From assembly GCA_017524165.1 (NCBI GenBank), contig JAFWUH010000036.1, positions 1 through 50,007 of the forward strand: DNA of 50,007 bases. Reading direction: 5' to 3'. A program made the position numbers and the translations under genes. The DNA is from Clostridia bacterium. GTDB lineage: Bacteria > Bacillota > Clostridia > Oscillospirales > Acutalibacteraceae. The notes under the pieces were generated by a model. It was given only the letters and a program-made list of their open reading frames with translations. It searched no databases and was not told the DNA's origin. This document shows positions 14,722 to 36,636 of this stretch, piece by piece. Each line of letters starts with the position of its first letter. Within the stretch, counting starts at the first letter, position 1.

Positions 14722-14765
14722 AAAAAACACAACGGTCTGTCCTGCTGTTTACAGAACAGACCGTT
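14722..14765 (-). terminator. Intrinsic terminator of the transglutaminase-dockerin gene
   Basis: A perfect 10-base-pair stem (AACGGTCTGT, 14731-14740, with ACAGACCGTT, 14756-14765) with a 15-base loop is followed on the minus strand by GTGTTTTTTG. It begins 14 bases after the stop codon and separates the surface-protein genes from the ribosomal operon. Confidence 0.85.
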
Positions 14766-14779
14766 GAAATATAGCACTA

Positions 14780-16369
14780 CTAAAATGAGTCAATGTCCCC
14801 CGCCACACATTTTTTCATGTGGATCAGATCGGTAATATCAATCGAATAGTCGCCGGTCACATCAAAAAAGTCCGGATGGGTATTGCCAACCGTTCCGACC
14901 AAAAGATAAACCCGAAGACCGACCAAATCACTCGCCGTGACCTGTTCATCTCCGTTTGCATCGCCGATTTCGGGCATAGAGTATTCATATTCCAAACCGT
15001 TTTCATCGTTAATGCCGTCCCGCGATTTCGTACAATACTGAATGACGCCTTTGCCGGCATACAGACATCCGTACATCTGATCACTATGAGAACGCGGAAT
15101 CGTTTGAACGGTGTGATCGGTCACGGAATAGGACCAAAGCTGATTGGAGCAGTTTAAATACAGTCGATTGCCCACTGCAAAGAATCCGCTGTAGAAATTG
15201 TCCCAAATACTGTTATTCGAGGGTGCACGCCATGCCGGTGAACTGACCGTTGTCACCAAGGACGCACTCATCCAGCCGGAATTGAGCCGATTAATTTCAG
15301 CCTTTCGATAGGATGCGGTGGTTATTGAGGAATCGTCTCCCGTATCCACCAGCATATAGCCTACTCCATTGCAGATCGCGATCGGATAATCGCTTTCGTG
15401 CCACGGTGCATTTTCAAAAGTATTGCTGTTACAAACAACATTATCTAAACCGGCGACCTGCCAGCACGGTTCATCGCCGGTCCACAGCAACATATTCTCA
15501 CCCTCGGGATCGGCAGGATCCGGATATTCCACTTCGCCGAAATAATCAATATGATGTTCCATAATCCTACTGTCGGTGGTCAACAATAATTCGTGCCTGC
15601 TCGGCACCATGCCGTAACCGTCGGGCGAAGGATCGTCATTCGTACAGTCCACATGATAATAGTTTGAACCGATTTTTACTATATTCCATGCATGAGCGTG
15701 AATATTGTCTGTGACTACATAAGAAACGATGCCCAACCGTTGCATCACCGCAAAAAAAGCATTGGTATACGCCGAACAAACGCCCTTTTTCTCCCGGAAA
15801 AATGTTACCGCATCATAAATCAAATAGTCCAGATCATATTCATAGTGCGCCACAAAGTAATCATGCACCGCAATAATTTTTTGTGTATCCGTCAAGCCTT
15901 TCCCGGAAACATAATTAACAATTTTCCGCAATTCCTTTTTATATTGTGCCAAGTAAAGTTCAGCCTGCGCTTGACTGCAGGTATAGGTGATATTATAAAC
16001 CGAGGTCACTTCCACTTTGCCGCTGACCGTCCTATACCGCATTCTGTAGGTTGAAAAAAAATCGACCGAGAATAGTTCCGGTACATAAAAATATAAATAA
16101 TCACAAAGAAGTTGTAACGCCTCGCTGATTTCATCTGCGTTATTGAATCTAAGATGATAATCACTCATTGATATTGTTGTTTGGTGCAGACGCATTCCTT
16201 CATACAACGCATTGGCAAATGCCTTCATGGTCGAATTATCCAATAACGAATAAACCTTTTCTAATTCAGGATGAATTTCGAGCGTATCGTCCTGCGCCGC
16301 AGTCGGTATACAAAAGAACCCTGTCAAAAGGACCAGCGATAATATCGCAGCAACGATCCGTTTGCTCAT
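14780..16369 (-). CDS. Secreted transglutaminase-like protein with C-terminal dockerin
   Basis: The 529-residue product has a signal peptide (about residues 1-25, ending in PTAAQ). Residues about 160-245 match the transglutaminase-like fold: Cys198 in KKGVCSAYTNAF, His226 in HAHAWNIV and Asp241 in YYHVDCTND form the expected triad. Such domains cleave or cross-link peptides; the substrate here is unknown. Residues 469-525 form a type I dockerin with two calcium-binding repeats (GDANGDEQVTASDLVGLR and DVTGDYSIDITDLIHMKK), so the protein should dock on a cohesin. Residues about 280-465 have no fold I recognise. The gene lies 34 bases downstream of a surface cohesin gene and is probably cotranscribed with it; it ends at a clear terminator. 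The Shine-Dalgarno AAAGGAG is 11 bases from the ATG, slightly long. Confidence 0.88.
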   Translation of the reverse strand: MSKRIVAAILSLVLLTGFFCIPTAAQDDTLEIHPELEKVYSLLDNSTMKAFANALYEGMRLHQTTISMSDYHLRFNNADEISEALQLLCDYLYFYVPELFSVDFFSTYRMRYRTVSGKVEVTSVYNITYTCSQAQAELYLAQYKKELRKIVNYVSGKGLTDTQKIIAVHDYFVAHYEYDLDYLIYDAVTFFREKKGVCSAYTNAFFAVMQRLGIVSYVVTDNIHAHAWNIVKIGSNYYHVDCTNDDPSPDGYGMVPSRHELLLTTDSRIMEHHIDYFGEVEYPDPADPEGENMLLWTGDEPCWQVAGLDNVVCNSNTFENAPWHESDYPIAICNGVGYMLVDTGDDSSITTASYRKAEINRLNSGWMSASLVTTVSSPAWRAPSNNSIWDNFYSGFFAVGNRLYLNCSNQLWSYSVTDHTVQTIPRSHSDQMYGCLYAGKGVIQYCTKSRDGINDENGLEYEYSMPEIGDANGDEQVTASDLVGLRVYLLVGTVGNTHPDFFDVTGDYSIDITDLIHMKKCVAGDIDSF

Positions 16370-16403
16370 CAGCGATCACACTCCTTTCCGATTTATAATA
16401 TAA

Positions 16404-17549
16404 TTACCATCCGAGAAACAGAACCGAGAGGATCGGCAAAATTAATTTCATACGAAGCTGATCCATCACCGTTCGTACGCCTTCACGCAGTACCGCCATC
16501 AAACCGCCGTCTCCATGTGCCCCGACAAAATACTGTACGGTACGGTCAATAAATCCCAAATCGGCAGTTTTTTCTTGTTCAATCAACTGTTCGGCAGACA
16601 TGGGTTCTTGCAGTTTTGGATCTTCTTCCGATGTTGGTTTCTCTTCCGGATCCGTCTGCTGCGGTTCATCTTCTTCTGCCGTATTCGGCGAATGTTCCTG
16701 TTGCTGTTTTATTTCTAACAGCAGTTGCCAGGTCTCCGGCTGGATCGCGTCATCTTTTTTATTGGAAAAATCATGCGTCGCCGAATCTAACAGCGAAAAG
16801 GTCACCGCGTCCGCTGTTTTATCGCATCGAATGCAATGCCGACTCATGATACCGTCTTGTTCAGAGGTTGCCGGACGGTCAACGATCCACTCCGATGTAA
16901 ACTCATGTCCGACCGGATCGGTTTCCCGGTTTTCATTATGCCCACATATACTGCAGACCCTCGTTTGCATACCGCCTTTAGTGCATTTTGCTTCGACCGT
17001 ATCGGTCCATTTACCGTAACGGTGTTTGCAGTTTTTGCCGTTATACTTGATTTCTACCCCGCCGGCAACCACCGTCGGCGTGATCTTGGTGCCTTCCCAA
17101 CAAGCAAAACAACCCGTCAAATTATCTGCTCTTTGACCGGGCCAGATGTTTTTGATTGTAATCGGATAAAAACCGACCTGCGCATCTTCCTTGACCTTAA
17201 ATTCCAAGGTCACCAGCGTCCCGTTTTCAGTACGGTTTTCCGACTCACAGTTTACGAAGCTGACATACCCGTTATGATCCTGCAACAAATAGTCCCGTAA
17301 AAATCCCGCATGAAATTTGGTATATTCCAACACATTCGGATCGTAGTGAAAGGTGACCGTGATTGCCATTAACGCCGTATTGTCGCTGATATCAATATTG
17401 ATCAGCACAGAATCTCCCGGCGCGGCAGTAACCGTATCCACCGTAACAGTAGGGTTGTAATCGGCGCGAACGAACAGTATATTTCCGAACAGCGCCGCTG
17501 TTAAGACTGTGCAAAGCAGAATTGCCGTTAAACTTTTCAACCGTGTCAA
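16404..17549 (-). CDS. Cell-surface single-cohesin protein with cysteine-rich module and C-terminal membrane anchor
   Basis: A 381-residue protein. A signal peptide covers about residues 1-29. A cohesin domain (about 33-170) is shown by VTVDTVTAAPGDSVLINIDI, FHYDPNVLEYTKF, GTLVTLEFKVKEDAQVGFYPI and a final GGVEIKY. Next comes a Cys/His-rich module (HRYGKWTDTVEAKC, CSICGHNENRETDPVGHEF, CIRCDK) of a kind repeated in clostridial surface proteins, then an acidic Glu/Pro/Gln-rich linker and a terminal hydrophobic helix (LILPILSVLFLGW) without an LPXTG-like motif. The start is TTG at 17549: AAAGGAG is nine bases before it, whereas the longer frame from 17591 would begin inside the promoter. Its role is likely to display one dockerin protein, the best candidate being the next gene. 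Confidence 0.85.
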   Translation of the reverse strand: MTRLKSLTAILLCTVLTAALFGNILFVRADYNPTVTVDTVTAAPGDSVLINIDISDNTALMAITVTFHYDPNVLEYTKFHAGFLRDYLLQDHNGYVSFVNCESENRTENGTLVTLEFKVKEDAQVGFYPITIKNIWPGQRADNLTGCFACWEGTKITPTVVAGGVEIKYNGKNCKHRYGKWTDTVEAKCTKGGMQTRVCSICGHNENRETDPVGHEFTSEWIVDRPATSEQDGIMSRHCIRCDKTADAVTFSLLDSATHDFSNKKDDAIQPETWQLLLEIKQQQEHSPNTAEEDEPQQTDPEEKPTSEEDPKLQEPMSAEQLIEQEKTADLGFIDRTVQYFVGAHGDGGLMAVLREGVRTVMDQLRMKLILPILSVLFLGW

Positions 17550-17581
17550 AATGACCGTCTCCTTTTCTTTCTCCAGAAAAA

Positions 17582-17610
17582 AATATACCATACCCCACTT
17601 TTTTTGTCAA
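17582..17610 (-). promoter_or_regulatory. Promoter of the cohesin-dockerin gene pair
   Basis: TTGACA (17610-17605) and TATATT (17587-17582) with a 17-base spacer on the minus strand. Transcription should begin near 17575, giving a leader of about 26 bases to the TTG start codon. The -35 box follows directly on the T run of the preceding terminator. Confidence 0.8.
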
Positions 17611-17653
17611 CAAAAAAGCGCATTTCGGAACCAAAGTGCCAAAATGTGCTTTT
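17611..17653 (-). terminator. Intrinsic terminator after the small cohesin gene
   Basis: A 14-base imperfect stem (AAAGCACATTTTGG on the RNA, pairing with CCGAAATGCGCTTT; one mismatch and one wobble) with a ten-base loop, followed by TTTTTTG on the minus strand. It ends the transcription unit that starts at the glycosylphosphotransferase gene. Confidence 0.75.
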
Positions 17654-17659
17654 CATCAT

Positions 17660-18244
17660 TTAACGGACCTTCACAAATCCCGTCGAGATTTTCGGTAACA
17701 CCGTGTTCTCGTCTATATCGGCAAACATGCTGTTATCCGTAAGTTCAATCGGATATTCGCCCTTTGCCGCATCTTTTTTAATAGAAAACTGCAAAATCAA
17801 CAGCGTGCCGTTTGCGGTGACATTTTTGGAAATATCGCTTTCCGAAATAATGCAACCGACCTTTCCGCCGGCGCCCTCCACCGTATATTCATCAAACAGA
17901 TCGCCTTCCTCATAGCCTTCGTAGACCAAAGCGGTGTCATCGTATTGGAAGTAAAGCTGTGCTGCCGCAATACCCGGGTTATCATTCAGATTGATCGGAA
18001 CGGAAACCTTATCCTCCGCTTTGCCTTCTGCCGGTTTAATCTTTACGGTACCTTTTTCGATTACCTGAGTCACCGGCGTATCGGAAGAACCGCCTGCCTG
18101 TGCAGAAGATTCTATATTCCCATTGTTTGATCCTCCGCCTTTTTTGACGGTAAACAACCCGGTCGAAAAACCGATCATGACCGTAACGGCGATCCCTAAC
18201 ACAACTACACCGGCAATAATACCAATTAACAGTTTCTTATTCAT
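17660..18244 (-). CDS. Membrane-anchored single-cohesin protein
   Basis: A 194-residue protein with an N-terminal transmembrane helix (LLIGIIAGVVVLGIAVTVMI), a Gly/Ser/Asn-rich spacer and one cohesin domain from about residue 60 to the end: DKVSVPINLNDNPGIAAAQL, FQYDDTALVYEGYEEGDLF, NGTLLILQFSIKKDAAKGEY and a final ISTGFVKV. It should hold a dockerin protein at the outer face of the membrane. Two ATGs are possible; the second (18244) is chosen because AAGGAG is seven bases from it and only one base from the first. The gene starts 11 bases after the nucleotidyltransferase stop, so it is read with the polysaccharide genes, which is an unusual partnership. Confidence 0.85.
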   Translation of the reverse strand: MNKKLLIGIIAGVVVLGIAVTVMIGFSTGLFTVKKGGGSNNGNIESSAQAGGSSDTPVTQVIEKGTVKIKPAEGKAEDKVSVPINLNDNPGIAAAQLYFQYDDTALVYEGYEEGDLFDEYTVEGAGGKVGCIISESDISKNVTANGTLLILQFSIKKDAAKGEYPIELTDNSMFADIDENTVLPKISTGFVKVR

Positions 18245-18255
18245 TTTCATACTCC

Positions 18256-19134
18256 TTACAAACCTTCGTATTCGCCGGCTTCGACCTTCGCTTTGATCGC
18301 GGCGACGACGCTGTCTTTATCTTCTTTATAGGTAACGCCGTACCATTTGTCTTCCGCCACCATTACCGCAACTTCTTTGGTGCCGTTGGCAATTTGATTG
18401 GCAACCACACTCGGCAGATAAAATTCCGATTTCGGCACGGTGATCTTTTCATCCAAAAATGCACAGAGGTCTTTTTCGATCTCGTCAAAAACATCGGGTG
18501 TAAAGCCCCACATATTCATTGAAACAACGGTATCCGCCGGCAATTCCACCCAATGAATGTCATCTTCGGTGTATTTGCAGTCGACAATCTTGGTACGCTC
18601 AACAATTTCTTTGAGCTTTCCGTCTTCGATGGTGCATACACCGCGGGAAACCGAGCCGTTTTCGGTCAATGTGTTTGCCAAACGGAAGCCAACCATGCAG
18701 TAATCAGACTTTTGTTCCGCCAAATGATTGTAAATCTGCTTCAAAGCGGTTTTCCCGTAATAGTCATCGGCATTGATGACGGCAAACGGTGTTTTTACCG
18801 TGTTACGACAACAATAGATAGCATGTCCGGTACCCCACGGTTTCTTGCGATCCGCAGGACAGGTATACCCTGCCGGCAGCTCGTCCAATTCCTGAAACAC
18901 ATATTCCACATCAATTTTTTTCTCGATGCGTTGACCGACTAATTCTTTAAATTCTTTCTCGATCTCATGTTTAATGACAAAAACGACCTTATTGAATCCC
19001 GCTGCTTTGGCATCGTAAACCGAGAAATCCAAAATGGCCTCTCCCTTCGGTCCGATCGGTTCCACCTGTTTCAGTCCGCCGAACCGACTACCCATTCCTG
19101 CCGCCATGACGACTAATGTTGCATCAAAACTCAT
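18256..19134 (-). CDS. Sugar-phosphate nucleotidyltransferase family protein
   Basis: A 292-residue Rossmann-like nucleotidyltransferase. The N-terminal nucleotide-binding motif is MAAGMGSRFGGLKQVEPIGP, and NADDYYG supplies the metal-binding Asp of the family. Such enzymes activate sugar phosphates to NDP-sugars; the exact sugar and nucleotide cannot be told from sequence by eye. Its ATG overlaps by four bases (ATGA) the stop of the glycosylphosphotransferase gene, so the two are coupled and it probably feeds an activated sugar into the same surface polysaccharide. Confidence 0.8.
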   Translation of the reverse strand: MSFDATLVVMAAGMGSRFGGLKQVEPIGPKGEAILDFSVYDAKAAGFNKVVFVIKHEIEKEFKELVGQRIEKKIDVEYVFQELDELPAGYTCPADRKKPWGTGHAIYCCRNTVKTPFAVINADDYYGKTALKQIYNHLAEQKSDYCMVGFRLANTLTENGSVSRGVCTIEDGKLKEIVERTKIVDCKYTEDDIHWVELPADTVVSMNMWGFTPDVFDEIEKDLCAFLDEKITVPKSEFYLPSVVANQIANGTKEVAVMVAEDKWYGVTYKEDKDSVVAAIKAKVEAGEYEGL

Positions 19135-20513
19135 TTTCTTTCATCCTTTCTCACCGAACGGGATGCCCGAACATTTTTATTCGCACTTTCGTCAAACCCT
19201 TCGGTACTTTCCTTCATAAATAATATTTTTACTGTAAGGATCAGCAATTTAATATCCGACAGCACAGAATAGGTTTCAATATAAAACAAATCCATGTGCA
19301 GCTTGTCCGCCGGCGAGGTGTTGTACTTCCCGTACAACTGTGCATAGCCCGTCAAACCGGTCTTGACCCGGTGACGCAATTCAAAATCAGGGTATTTTGC
19401 CGCATATTCATAGACATTTTCGATCCGTTCCGGTCGCGGTCCTACCATCGACATGTCCCCGCGCAACACATTAAAAAACTGCGGCAGCTCGTCCATGCGG
19501 CAAGCGCGGATGAATTTCCCGACCCGGGTGATCCGTTTATCGTCCTCTACCGCTTTTTTGGCACCGTCTTTATCGGCATCGACAACCATTGAACGAAACT
19601 TTATAATATTAAAAATTTTTCCGCCCTTCGTAATCCGGTTCTGGCGAAAGAAAACCGGACCGCCGTCGTCCAATTTAATGGCAATAGCGCAACCCAACAT
19701 GATCGGGCTGGTCAGCACAATGGCAACCAAAGACAGCAAAATATCAAAAAACCGCTTGATGATTTCCTGCTCCACCGTCAAACCTCTGTTTCGACTGACC
19801 AAAACCGGCGTATCGCTGATCTGCATTTCAAAACTGTTATTTAAAACGATATCGGTGATATCCGGCAACAAATAGGTTCGCTTTTGCTTGGTATAGCAAT
19901 ACGCAAAAAGCTCTTTTTGCTTGGATTTATCCATATCGCAGAGAATGACCGCCTCATATTTATCAATGTGCCGCTTGATCCCTTCCATCCCGACGCGTTC
20001 GACATTCAGCCCGCATTCGATGCGGAACCGTTCGGAAATTTTACTCATTTTCCGAATCAATTCAAATCCCTCGGCATCATTGCTAAAAATGGCAATCATT
20101 TTCCGCGCTTTGTAAAGCCGAAAATAAAACACATTAGCACAACAACTACCCAAAACGATCACAAAAAACTGATATACGCATCCTCTGAGCATCGGCAAAA
20201 CGGGAATTAACTGTCGGGCAATCAAACTAAGTTCCATATACATGATTGCATTGGTAAAAACAATGGCCAATGCAAAACTGTAAATCACTTCATGCACCCG
20301 CTGTACCCCGATATGAAAAGCACCGTACAGGGTAGAAAATGTTGCAAAAAGTAAGATAAACGACAAAATAACCAAATAGTTTCCCTTTTGACTGAAAAGG
20401 GTGGTAATGTAGTTGGAGGTCCAAGTTTGAATAAAGCCGAGCGTGACCGCCGTCACTAAGGTTGCTTTCACAAAAAGCATGACGGATTTTCTGAATTTTA
20501 CTACTTCTTTCAT
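19131..20513 (-). CDS. Polyprenyl-phosphate sugar phosphotransferase (exopolysaccharide initiation)
   Basis: A 460-residue membrane protein of the WbaP/WcaJ type, which transfers a sugar-1-phosphate from an NDP-sugar to undecaprenyl phosphate as the first step of surface polysaccharide synthesis. Four hydrophobic helices lie in the first 140 residues, then a cytosolic CoA-binding-like middle region, then a fifth helix and the catalytic domain: GGPVFFRQNRITKGGKIFNI, KFRSM, RACRMDELPQFFNVLRGDMS, VGPRPE and GLTGYAQLYGKY. The longer frame (to 20561) would start within the promoter; the ATG at 20513 has GGGAG eight bases upstream. Followed by an overlapping nucleotidyltransferase gene. Confidence 0.92.
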   Translation of the reverse strand: MKEVVKFRKSVMLFVKATLVTAVTLGFIQTWTSNYITTLFSQKGNYLVILSFILLFATFSTLYGAFHIGVQRVHEVIYSFALAIVFTNAIMYMELSLIARQLIPVLPMLRGCVYQFFVIVLGSCCANVFYFRLYKARKMIAIFSNDAEGFELIRKMSKISERFRIECGLNVERVGMEGIKRHIDKYEAVILCDMDKSKQKELFAYCYTKQKRTYLLPDITDIVLNNSFEMQISDTPVLVSRNRGLTVEQEIIKRFFDILLSLVAIVLTSPIMLGCAIAIKLDDGGPVFFRQNRITKGGKIFNIIKFRSMVVDADKDGAKKAVEDDKRITRVGKFIRACRMDELPQFFNVLRGDMSMVGPRPERIENVYEYAAKYPDFELRHRVKTGLTGYAQLYGKYNTSPADKLHMDLFYIETYSVLSDIKLLILTVKILFMKESTEGFDESANKNVRASRSVRKDERK

Positions 20514-20544
20514 AAAAAATGCTCCCGCCCTTTGTATCGAATAT

Positions 20545-20573
20545 AGTATACCATACTCCACACCGGTTTACAA
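20545..20573 (-). promoter_or_regulatory. Promoter of the glycosylphosphotransferase operon
   Basis: TTGTAA (20573-20568) and TATACT (20550-20545) with a 17-base spacer on the minus strand, and a predicted start near 20537, 24 bases before the ATG. It lies in the short gap after spoIIID, where no terminator was seen, so some readthrough from spoIIID is possible. Confidence 0.75.
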
Positions 20574-25305: not shown

Positions 25306-26427
25306 TTAGGGTGCGAAACCGTTTGGCTCCTCCGACGAACCCGTTGAACCGCTTGCCGCCTCTGCGGAGGGCGCCTGATTACTTCCGTTTTCAGCGGGAC
25401 CCGGCGGTTGCTCGCCGACCGGTTCCGAAGACCCGGAAAGCTCGCTTGACGCCGACGGTACATCCTGAACGCTGATGCCTTCCGCCGCATAAGGATACTC
25501 TTTCTTCTTGACCTCATACCATTTTTTCGGGAACCGCGCCGATTTGTTTTCGCGTGCCGATGCGGTATCAACGGTTGGATCTTCGCCATCCCGTACCCGG
25601 CGCGCCATCACAACCAAACGCGCATTCTCAAAATCGTAACAGCAGGTCACCAACGAAAGAATTTCATCTTCGGGTACAACATCCACCGTGGTATTGATCA
25701 AACTACGCTGTCGAGCTTCTGCCAGCCAGGCGTCGAACGCCTCGGCGGTCGAAAAATAATCAGTTGTGATGTTGTAAATTCGCCCGTTATCGTCTTCCGT
25801 CGTTGCGTTCAAGACCATGATCGCATAAATTTTATAAATCACATCCTCATACCGCGTGGAAAGATTGATCACGGGATTTTGTTGATAAAACCCAAGTCTG
25901 CGTAAGTAGTGTAGGGTGCCAAACATACTGCCGTCTGTAGTATCATGCCCGTAAATCACCAAATTTTTATCACTGCGTTCCTGATCGATCGTATCTAAAC
26001 AACTCAAAAAGACGGCGCCGTATTTTGATTTTTCTTTTAACTGATTATGGGTTAAATAAAAATCGTCATCATTACACTGATAAAACGGGTTGTCGATTTT
26101 CGTCCCACTCACCGTGATCCATCCGCGAAAATCCGGATTTTCAGCGATCATGGCGGCAAATTTTTCCTCGGTCTTCACCGTTTGATCGTGCCAGATCTTG
26201 CGGCTGTGATCTACGACCTTTCGTTGGCTTGCCGATTCCACGCTGAAAAAAAACAGATAAATCAAGGATACGATCAGCGCCGCCAGACAAAGTAACATCC
26301 CGCATTTCAGAAGAATTTGCCGCAAAGGATCCTTTTTTTGCGGAATCAAAAAGAGATACAGACGGTACGCGCATTTTTTGATTACCGTCGAGACGCTTTG
26401 AGCGCATGTTTTCAACCGATCGGTCAT
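25306..26427 (-). CDS. srtB: Class B sortase with long C-terminal tail
   Basis: A 373-residue membrane-anchored transpeptidase. A cytosolic N-terminus of about 40 residues precedes one transmembrane helix (about 41-61). The sortase B domain spans about 70-280: RGWITVSGTKIDNPFYQCND, then NLVIYGHDTTDGSMFG with catalytic His161, and SLVTCCYDFENARLVV with catalytic Cys262 and Arg270. After the domain comes an unusual tail of about 90 residues rich in Ser, Glu, Pro and Gly. Sortases fix proteins to the cell wall or build pili; no protein in this window carries a clear sorting signal, so the substrate lies elsewhere. Its ATG overlaps the thiI stop by four bases. Confidence 0.92.
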   Translation of the reverse strand: MTDRLKTCAQSVSTVIKKCAYRLYLFLIPQKKDPLRQILLKCGMLLCLAALIVSLIYLFFFSVESASQRKVVDHSRKIWHDQTVKTEEKFAAMIAENPDFRGWITVSGTKIDNPFYQCNDDDFYLTHNQLKEKSKYGAVFLSCLDTIDQERSDKNLVIYGHDTTDGSMFGTLHYLRRLGFYQQNPVINLSTRYEDVIYKIYAIMVLNATTEDDNGRIYNITTDYFSTAEAFDAWLAEARQRSLINTTVDVVPEDEILSLVTCCYDFENARLVVMARRVRDGEDPTVDTASARENKSARFPKKWYEVKKKEYPYAAEGISVQDVPSASSELSGSSEPVGEQPPGPAENGSNQAPSAEAASGSTGSSEEPNGFAP

Positions 26428-36274: not shown

Positions 36275-36613
36275 CTAAAAAATAATGATAATGTTGTCAT
36301 CATTCAGCGCGTCAAAAGCTGACGAATCCCCCATCAAATATTTACGGATTGCCACCAAATCTTCCGCCGAAATATGGCGAACATCGGTATTTGCATCAAT
36401 CACATCATAATCTACTGTGCCGTTTTGTTGTAAAGAAATTAAATACTTCTTTAAATGAACCAAATCACGAATATCTACCGTGCTGTCATCGTTATAATCC
36501 CCGTTCATTTGTGGTGCGGTTTGCGCACAAACCGTTTGGACACCCAAAGCCGTAAAAACAGAAATTGTTATCGCCAATGCCACAAGCACGGTTTTTAGTC
36601 TTTTTACAAACAC
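36275..36613 (-). CDS. Small secreted dockerin protein
   Basis: A 112-residue product: a basic N-terminus, a signal peptide (TVLVALAITISVFTALGVQT, cleavage near VCAQT) and then little besides a type I dockerin with two repeats (DYNDDSTVDIRDLVHLKKYL and DANTDVRHISAEDLVAIRKY). The second repeat is less regular at the calcium positions. There is no catalytic module, so it may act as a competitor, cap or adaptor on cohesins. The start is GTG at 36613 with AGGAG nine bases upstream; an ATG seven codons earlier has the Shine-Dalgarno site inside its frame. Confidence 0.82.
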   Translation of the reverse strand: MFVKRLKTVLVALAITISVFTALGVQTVCAQTAPQMNGDYNDDSTVDIRDLVHLKKYLISLQQNGTVDYDVIDANTDVRHISAEDLVAIRKYLMGDSSAFDALNDDNIIIIF

Positions 36614-36636
36614 TTGCGTCCACTCCTTTGGCATTA

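What the first reader, a model, noticed from the sequence alone, without database searches (positions are those of the whole stretch)
14780..18250. Compact cohesin-dockerin surface module built around a transglutaminase-like protein
Two single-cohesin proteins with opposite membrane anchors (C-terminal helix; N-terminal helix) stand beside a secreted dockerin protein whose only recognisable catalytic part is transglutaminase-like rather than a glycoside hydrolase. This may be a non-cellulosomal use of cohesin-dockerin pairing, for example display of a peptidase or cross-linking enzyme on the cell surface.
Basis: partly seen in the sequence, partly recalled or inferred. Interest (0 to 1): 0.72.

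Follow-up and report, generated by a model that had tools for sequence, protein, structure and literature searches.

The report
Surface docking pair for transglutaminase-like enzyme
A gut bacterium in which no cellulosome scaffold was found encodes a secreted cysteine enzyme of the transglutaminase-like kind whose docking plug is made beside its own socket protein, which suggests that the cellulosome's plug-and-socket may be used here to hold single enzymes at the cell surface.

Summary
On the minus strand Pfam finds a secreted transglutaminase-like (TG) protein with a C-terminal dockerin (triad Cys198/His226/Asp241, invariant in 25 of 25 aligned proteins) and two single-cohesin proteins. CohB's N-terminal membrane helix is clear; CohA's C-terminal one is marginal. 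The genes form two likely units: glycosyltransferase–nucleotidyltransferase–CohB, then a terminator-like hairpin and promoter match, then CohA–TG.

TG-dockerin and cohesin genes are adjacent or fused in nine genomes, the window's included. In the best 80 named loci, 7 of 30 TG proteins with a dockerin have a linked cohesin, against 0 of 56 without; linkage is still the minority state. This genome has 18 dockerin matches, no protein found with two cohesins, and no GH9 match. I read it as one-cohesin-per-anchor display of single enzymes.

TG-dockerin proteins and membrane single-cohesin proteins are known; the dedicated pair looks like a new variant. In passing: a SagB-like glucosaminidase-dockerin gene lies beside a membrane cohesin-like gene in 20 of 20 further genus loci fetched.

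The parts
14780..16369 (-). Secreted transglutaminase-like protein with C-terminal type I dockerin (529 aa; N-terminal signal peptide)
   Evidence: Pfam PF01841 E 1.7e-12 and PF00404 E 2.6e-8; signal peptide read by eye from the sequence
15644..15925 (-). Transglutaminase-like core, residues 149-242, with Cys198 (15776-15778), His226 (15692-15694), Asp241 (15647-15649)
   Evidence: Pfam; triad invariant in 11/11 and 25/25; aligns with PDB 9crn_A, E 7.4e-5
14810..14965 (-). Type I dockerin: loops DANGDEQVTASD (helix LRV) and DVTGDYSIDITD (helix MKK)
14730..14766 (-). Terminator-like hairpin after the TG gene, 16-bp stem and T run
   Evidence: fold -26.9 kcal/mol, z -7.1
16404..17549 (-). CohA: signal peptide, one cohesin, cysteine-rich HxYGxW...CxxCG...RHCxxCD module, acidic linker, C-terminal helices; probable TTG start at 17549 (longest ORF to 17591)
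   Evidence: PF00963 E 7.5e-15; start inferred
17148..17450 (-). Cohesin domain of CohA
16413..16457 (-). C-terminal 15-residue hydrophobic segment of CohA, a marginal membrane helix
   Evidence: mean hydropathy 1.99 over 15 residues, 1.53 over 19
17582..17610 (-). Promoter-like site TTGACA-17-TATATT before CohA-TG
   Evidence: 11 of 12 consensus positions; the scan found 21 sites where shuffles give 11.8
17613..17654 (-). Terminator-like hairpin with T run between CohB and CohA
   Evidence: -18.2 kcal/mol, z -4.5; sequence; not among the sites listed by the scan
17660..18250 (-). CohB: N-terminal membrane helix (about 18173-18229) and one cohesin (17666-18049)
   Evidence: PF00963 E 5.6e-17; mean hydropathy 2.88 over 19 residues
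18256..19134 (-). Sugar-phosphate nucleotidyltransferase-like gene, upstream neighbour of CohB
   Evidence: PF00483 E 2.4e-11; order kept in 10 of 19 CohB-type loci
19131..20561 (-). Polyprenyl-phosphate sugar phosphotransferase, first gene of the CohB unit
   Evidence: PF02397 E 7.2e-67; TIGR03025 over cut-off
36275..36634 (-). Second dockerin protein of the window: secreted, 119 aa, nearly dockerin only (36335-36502)

Best explanation
CohA and the TG-dockerin protein are a dedicated socket-plug pair, probably made from one bicistronic mRNA. The TG-like cysteine enzyme (Cys-His-Asp) is secreted and held at the cell envelope by calcium-dependent docking of its type I dockerin onto a single-cohesin surface protein: its operon partner CohA and/or the membrane-anchored CohB. 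There it acts on protein or peptide bonds at the cell surface, more likely as a peptidase/amidase than as a net cross-linker. No multi-enzyme scaffold is built; each anchor holds one client. Shown by computation: the domains, the conserved triad and calcium loops, the CohB membrane helix, the two-unit layout (as consensus and folding matches), and recurrent adjacency or fusion with a cohesin. Inferred: that docking occurs, which cohesin is used, CohA's anchoring, and the enzyme's reaction and substrate.
For: Domains over curated cut-offs. Triad invariant in 25 of 25 aligned proteins. CohA and TG genes 34 bp apart, with a promoter match before and a strong terminator-like hairpin after. Same-strand cohesin gene 8-19 bp upstream of a TG-dockerin gene in G026, G025, G029, RGIG975 and SIG710, and cohesin + TG + dockerin in one chain in RGIG5957, RGIG3526 and RGIG3116. 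Linked cohesin in 7 of 30 dockerin-bearing TG proteins against 0 of 56 without a dockerin in the named set; one-sided Fisher 3.8e-4, relatedness not corrected. The linked state needs 5 changes on the TG tree and well-supported branches force at least 2. The anchor varies while the link stays: three S-layer domains in two of the fusions, two in the SIG710 neighbour, and by eye a C-terminal helix with basic tail in RGIG975. Own genome: no frame with two cohesins, no GH9, no S-layer domain match. The TG dockerin has the same split helix code as 15 other dockerins of the genome.
Against: Linkage is the minority state: 11 of 14 TG-dockerin loci among the fetched relatives and 23 of 30 TG-dockerin proteins in the named set have no cohesin on the fetched stretch, and 16 of 20 CohA-type loci have no TG gene on theirs. 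One CohA-type gene (G019, L136) is flanked by two other dockerin genes that are not TG. In G043 a TG protein without a dockerin lies near cohesin genes: 2.1 kb away by my profile, nearer (about 1.1 kb) by a Pfam match. G029's cohesin is found only by CohA-based searches, not by Pfam; RGIG5957's scores 21.7 against a 24.1 cut-off. CohA's C-terminal segment is weakly hydrophobic and three TG-linked relatives lack it. In the fusions the dockerin is not needed to bring the enzyme to its own cohesin. I have no binding or activity data.
Confidence: 0.6

Rival explanations
1. A reduced cellulosome- or mucinolysome-like degradative system in which the TG-like protein is an accessory peptidase among glycan-degrading clients.
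For: 18 dockerin matches, 16 over the cut-off. Among the clients: a SASA esterase, a match to 3-keto-disaccharide hydrolase under its cut-off (22.4 against 26.8 bits) and a SagB-like glucosaminidase. TG-like and peptidase dockerin proteins occur in the R. flavefaciens cellulosome (PMC2930009, passages), and Limousia mucinolysomes contain dockerin peptidases (PMC12997984, passages).
Against: No frame with more than one cohesin, no GH9, no cellulase or hemicellulase Pfam family at E <= 0.001 in the 17 of 18 dockerin proteins scanned (two were cut at a locus edge). GH48 was not found, but that search's controls were silent, so it says nothing. Several large clients have no catalytic family hit and could hide unlisted hydrolases.
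Confidence: 0.2
2. CohA and the TG protein are not each other's partner: the TG dockerin docks only on CohB, the general socket for the genome's common dockerin class, and CohA serves something else.
For: The TG dockerin shares the split Arg17/Lys17 helix code with 15 other dockerins, so its socket should serve many clients. CohB has the only clear membrane anchor here and is kept with its operon in 10 of 19 genus loci. CohA is mostly away from TG genes.
Against: Recurrent tight adjacency and fusion of TG-dockerin with a cohesin and the probable bicistronic layout.
Confidence: 0.35
3. The TG domain is a cross-linker that covalently fixes docked proteins, or their anchors, at the surface.
For: Complete Cys-His-Asp triad; cohesin, TG core and dockerin share one chain in three genomes, so the enzyme could sit inside the docking complex.
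Against: Nothing in the sequence separates hydrolysis from transamidation. My recollection, from no call, is that many bacterial members of this superfamily are thought to act as proteases.
Confidence: 0.15

Closest known systems
Ruminococcus flavefaciens FD-1 TG-like dockerin proteins (group 4b, ORF01263-01266; PMC2930009, passages)
   Same: Signal peptide - TG-like domain - dockerin, in a gene cluster; the passages seen assign no function
   Different: There TG-like genes and an LRR-dockerin gene sit together, in an organism with 17 cohesin proteins and 223 dockerin proteins (PMC4081043, passages); here one TG gene is paired with a single-cohesin gene, and the genome shows no multi-cohesin protein and no GH9
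Single-cohesin membrane proteins of Lachnoclostridium sp. MSJ-17 and 'nonSLH-anchoring scaffoldins' (PMC11557425, passages)
   Same: Single cohesins with a membrane helix, many dockerin proteins, presumed non-cellulolytic host
   Different: MSJ-17 also has a two-cohesin scaffoldin, and its helices are C-terminal; the passages seen mention no dedicated partner gene. Here CohB has an N-terminal helix and a recurrent operon, and CohA is gene-linked to a TG-dockerin
Protease or peptidase dockerins: C. thermocellum S8 double dockerin preferring ScaD (PMC12484212, passages); R. flavefaciens NlpC/P60-like X-dockerin binding ScaE (PMC3573020, passages)
   Same: A non-carbohydrate enzyme tied to a surface cohesin through a dockerin
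   Different: There the surface cohesin belongs to a cellulosome; here no multi-cohesin scaffold was found
R. albus 7 and SY3: one cohesin protein, 90 and 58 dockerin proteins (PMC4081043, passages)
   Same: Many dockerins, very few cohesins, role unclear
   Different: The R. albus cohesin is a cohesin-dockerin adaptor in a cellulolytic host; here two strong and two weak single-cohesin proteins, one of the weak ones also with a dockerin
R. bromii amylosome (PMC9112005, passages)
   Same: Few cohesins (six) and 27 dockerin proteins, only five of them GH13 enzymes
   Different: Starch-binding scaffoldins, two with sortase signals and one with two cohesins; no TG pair mentioned in the passages seen

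Membership tests
Cohesin (Pfam PF00963, type I-like) | Cohesin domain over curated cut-off | tested here: met
   CohA 55.8 and CohB 62.7 bits against 24.1; best solved relatives of the CohB profile are scaffoldin cohesins 2vn5 and 1g1k, E about 4e-15 (that these are type I is recalled)
Dockerin type I (PF00404) | Two calcium-binding loop-helix repeats | tested here: met
   34.3 bits against 22.9; both loops fit the pattern
Cellulosome | Scaffoldin with several cohesins | tested here: not met
   Five cohesin matches at E <= 1 in five separate frames; a draft genome, 98.6% complete
Cellulosome | Dockerin-bearing cellulases (GH9, GH48 and the like) | tested here: not met
   GH9 absent with working controls; no cellulase Pfam family in 17 of 18 dockerin proteins, two of them cut short. 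GH48 inconclusive (controls silent)
Transglutaminase-like superfamily (PF01841) | Core domain with Cys-His-Asp triad | tested here: met
   48 bits against 23; triad invariant in 25 of 25; aligns with solved TG-like protein 9crn
Transglutaminase-like superfamily (PF01841) | Triad residues brought together in the fold | not testable with these tools
Transglutaminase (enzyme activity) | Acyl transfer from glutamine to an amine | not testable with these tools
   Needs purified enzyme
Non-SLH anchoring scaffoldin | Cohesin plus a membrane or wall anchor | tested here: inconclusive
   CohB N-terminal 2.88, CohA C-terminal 1.53 mean hydropathy over 19 residues: met for CohB, marginal for CohA. No dedicated topology predictor was run
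R. flavefaciens group 4b dockerins | First calcium loop possibly extended to 15 residues by an Asp at position 16 | not tested
   Group 4b sequences were not fetched

The most novel reading that the evidence does not exclude
In this genus cohesin-dockerin pairing is a general tether for envelope enzymes, one enzyme per anchor, rather than a scaffold for polymer-degrading complexes. The widespread pair ties a SagB-like peptidoglycan glucosaminidase to a membrane cohesin, doing by plug-and-socket what SagB-SpdC does in S. aureus; the window's CohA-TG pair is a second, patchily distributed pair of the same design.
Probability: 0.45. Interest if true: 0.75.

Novelty: new variant of a known kind. 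Interest (0 to 1): 0.52.

Why it matters
Some genomes hold dozens of dockerins and almost no cohesins, and what those dockerins do is called an open question (PMC4081043, passages). A cohesin gene dedicated to a TG-dockerin gene, with whole-protein fusions in relatives, turns that into named pairs that can be tested for binding and activity. If confirmed, it would show cohesin-dockerin pairing as a modular anchoring system for single surface enzymes, outside polysaccharide breakdown.

Tried and rejected
Rejected: (a) the fifth cohesin match (G000:C41, E 0.044) lies in a protein that reads like a histidine-biosynthesis HisZ/HisG fusion (recognised from memory), so I dropped it as a cohesin. (b) A frameshift at CohA's C-terminus: similar short hydrophobic ends occur in L134, L139 and L141, so the tail is probably real. 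(c) The trio as one operon: rejected for the hairpin and promoter match between CohB and CohA. (d) A classical or S-layer-bound scaffold: no multi-cohesin frame and no S-layer domain. Two sortases exist; I saw no sorting motif in CohA or CohB by eye and made no search for one.

Led nowhere: papers for PDB entry 9crn (none) and for TG-like enzymes of gut Clostridia (nothing relevant in the listing); the 2009 review of non-cellulosomal cohesins is not held. The first dockerin repeat count in relatives ignored strand and was replaced, where two of the 30 rows (L242, L248) still parsed badly. Loci were picked from hit tables, not at random. Rows dropped: four TG rows duplicated between sets were left out of the tree, and 65 of the 103 remaining TG rows entered it. 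In that tree L150 and L156 were labelled as lacking a dockerin because of a database-size-dependent E-value; Pfam finds one in both.
Full report
WHAT IS THERE. The window is a whole contig (C16) of a 1.53-Mb draft genome, 98.6% complete with 2.1% contamination. Related public records are labelled Oscillospiraceae bacterium SIG600, Ruminococcaceae bacterium UBA1741 and others; I could not name the organism itself. Three minus-strand genes make up the finding: a TG-like protein with a C-terminal dockerin (14780-16369), CohA (16404-17591 as longest ORF) and CohB (17660-18250). Pfam places all four domains over their cut-offs. The TG triad is Cys198, His226, Asp241, invariant in 11 of 11 and 25 of 25 aligned proteins, and the stretch aligns with the solved TG-like protein 9crn. 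Both dockerin loops fit the pattern. A match to some part of the TG protein occurs in 43 of 60 related genomes and a cohesin in 46 of 60, the window's own counted.

TWO UNITS. Between CohB and CohA lies a hairpin followed by a T run (-18.2 kcal/mol, z -4.5; the scan did not list it), then a promoter match of 11 of 12 positions that overlaps the ATG of CohA; a TTG at 17549 with a GGAG 9 nt upstream is the likelier start. After the TG gene comes a strong terminator-like hairpin (z -7.1). These are consensus and folding results, not transcript data; the scan found 21 promoter-like sites against 11.8 in shuffles and 12 terminator-like sites against 6.9.

COMPARISON. Of 19 CohB-type loci from the genus, 10 keep the order glycosyltransferase, nucleotidyltransferase, CohB; one more has the glycosyltransferase directly upstream and one the nucleotidyltransferase only. 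Of 20 CohA-type loci fetched, three have a TG-dockerin gene directly beside them (G026, G025, G029), one (G043) has a dockerin-less TG gene nearby, and 16 have no TG gene on stretches of about 3 to 7 kb; one of these (G019) is flanked by two other dockerin genes.

LINKAGE. Seven of the 30 have a cohesin on the same locus: four on the same strand 13-19 bp upstream and three in the same polypeptide. None of the 56 without a dockerin has one (one-sided Fisher 3.8e-4; relatedness not corrected). Among the separately fetched relatives it is 3 of 14 with a dockerin and 1 of 6 without; two of those three are also in the named set. Pfam finds cohesin, TG core and dockerin in one chain over all cut-offs for RGIG3526 and RGIG3116; in RGIG5957 the cohesin is just under its cut-off. 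RGIG5957 and RGIG3526 also carry three S-layer domains, as does the cohesin protein near the TG gene of G043; the SIG710 neighbour carries two. With duplicates removed (L147 is G025, L164 is G029, judged by equal contig lengths) and the window included, nine genomes show the link. On the TG tree the linked state needs five changes and well-supported branches force at least two; the tree has long branches, the window's among them.

ANCHORS. CohB has a clear N-terminal helix (2.88), and the 19 CohB-type relatives reach 2.58-3.47. CohA's C-terminal best is 1.53; three TG-linked relatives reach 0.89-1.03 and end instead in an amphipathic stretch that looks conserved, while five CohA-type proteins not beside a TG gene end in a membrane helix with a basic tail, as does, by eye, the TG-linked RGIG975 protein.

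GENOME CONTEXT. Five cohesin matches at E <= 1, one of them rejected, no two in one frame. Eighteen dockerin matches, 16 over cut-off; at that loose threshold 9 of 14 control genomes also ring (2 over cut-off), so the weakest two may be chance. Seventeen of the 18 dockerin proteins were scanned with Pfam (the window's second one was not; two were cut at a locus edge); 13 of the 17 pass the dockerin cut-off on that scan. Over cut-off beside the dockerin: LRR, C-type lectin, SASA esterase, SH3, carboxypeptidase-regulatory-like domains, TG and a few others; no cellulase or hemicellulase family. Under cut-off: a 3-keto-disaccharide hydrolase match and an F5/8C match. One client is a SagB-like glucosaminidase by NCBIfam. 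No GH9, no S-layer domain, two sortases. GH48 gave nothing, but its controls were silent.

DOCKERIN CODE. In 16 of the 18 dockerins one repeat has Arg and the other Lys at position 17; the order is Arg-Lys in eight (the TG protein among them) and Lys-Arg in eight. The exceptions are C67 (Arg-Arg) and C74 (Glu-Arg). In six relatives, 10 of 30 dockerin loci examined (of 55 matches; two rows parsed badly) show one of each, so this is not genus-wide. It suggests a shared socket met in two flipped orientations; that is inference.

MECHANISM. I favour calcium-dependent docking of the secreted TG-like enzyme on a single-cohesin surface protein, acting locally on peptide or amide bonds. Whether CohA, CohB or both receive it is open: adjacency and fusion argue for CohA, the shared dockerin code and clear anchor argue for CohB.

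WHAT IS KNOWN. TG-like dockerin proteins are reported in R. flavefaciens (ten TG modules; ORF01263-01266 listed with expression changes of 3.0-4.1; PMC2930009, passages). Membrane single-cohesin proteins with many dockerins in a presumed non-cellulolytic host are reported for Lachnoclostridium sp. MSJ-17 (PMC11557425, passages). Surface-tethered protease dockerins are reported (PMC12484212; PMC3573020; passages). R. albus (PMC4081043; PMC4300822), the R. bromii amylosome (PMC9112005), and Limousia mucinolysomes and the single-cohesin proteins of C. perfringens (PMC12997984) were also seen in passages. A search for transglutaminase with cohesin and dockerin (15 titles listed, three of them read in passages) showed no dedicated cohesin-TG pair. 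The library is open-licence only, so absence there is weak evidence.

A SECOND PAIR NOTICED. On contig C67 of the same genome a SagB-like glucosaminidase (NCBIfam NF052642 E 8.6e-17, far below that model's cut-off) with a dockerin of two near-identical repeats lies near a cohesin-like, cadherin-like, membrane-anchored protein (Pfam cohesin 23.8 bits against 24.1), with one gene between. In 20 of 20 further genus loci fetched (18 chosen by the cohesin-like hit, two by the dockerin hit) relatives of the two genes are direct neighbours; my cohesin profile sees the cohesin in 18 of the 20. A near full-length match to the membrane protein occurs in 32 of 37 genus genomes, counting one cut at a contig end, and in one of 23 genomes of other families. 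The two dockerin repeats are on average 80% identical within a species and 51% between species, although the recognition positions 10, 11 and 16-18 are all identical in only 7 of 21; dockerin and cohesin distances correlate beyond the rest of the two proteins (partial r 0.27; 51 of 5000 permutations as high). In S. aureus SagB works in complex with the membrane protein SpdC (PMC10581084, passages). Two searches listed no paper whose title or abstract start names a SagB-like dockerin protein.

Noticed in passing
G000:C67 (L027:3432-7843, minus strand); L261-L280: SagB-like glucosaminidase with a two-fold repeated dockerin next to a cohesin-like, cadherin-like, membrane-anchored protein: direct neighbours in 20 of 20 further genus loci fetched (in the window's genome one gene lies between), membrane protein in 32 of 37 genus genomes. 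It looks like a widespread, non-cellulosomal cohesin-dockerin pair, comparable to SagB-SpdC.
   Followed up: partly
18 dockerins of the genome, e.g. window 14810-14965 and 36335-36502: 16 of 18 dockerins have one Arg17 and one Lys17 repeat, eight in each order, which suggests one asymmetric socket met in two flipped orientations; only 10 of 30 in six relatives show it.
   Followed up: partly
window 36275-36634, minus strand: Secreted 119-aa protein that is little more than a dockerin, next to a mannose-6-phosphate isomerase-like gene; what it would bring to a cohesin is unclear.
   Followed up: no
window 18256-20561 and genus loci L110, L115, L118, L119, L121-L126: A recurrent unit glycosyltransferase-nucleotidyltransferase-CohB links a membrane cohesin to sugar-transfer genes; reason unknown.
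   Followed up: partly
window 16404-17591, residues about 180-260, and CohA relatives: Cysteine-rich HxYGxW..C..CxxCG..RHCxxCD module without a Pfam family hit, visible in 19 of 21 aligned CohA-type rows.
   Followed up: no
window 25306-26427, minus strand: A sortase gene (PF04203 E 3.8e-11), one of two found in the genome; substrates not sought.
   Followed up: no
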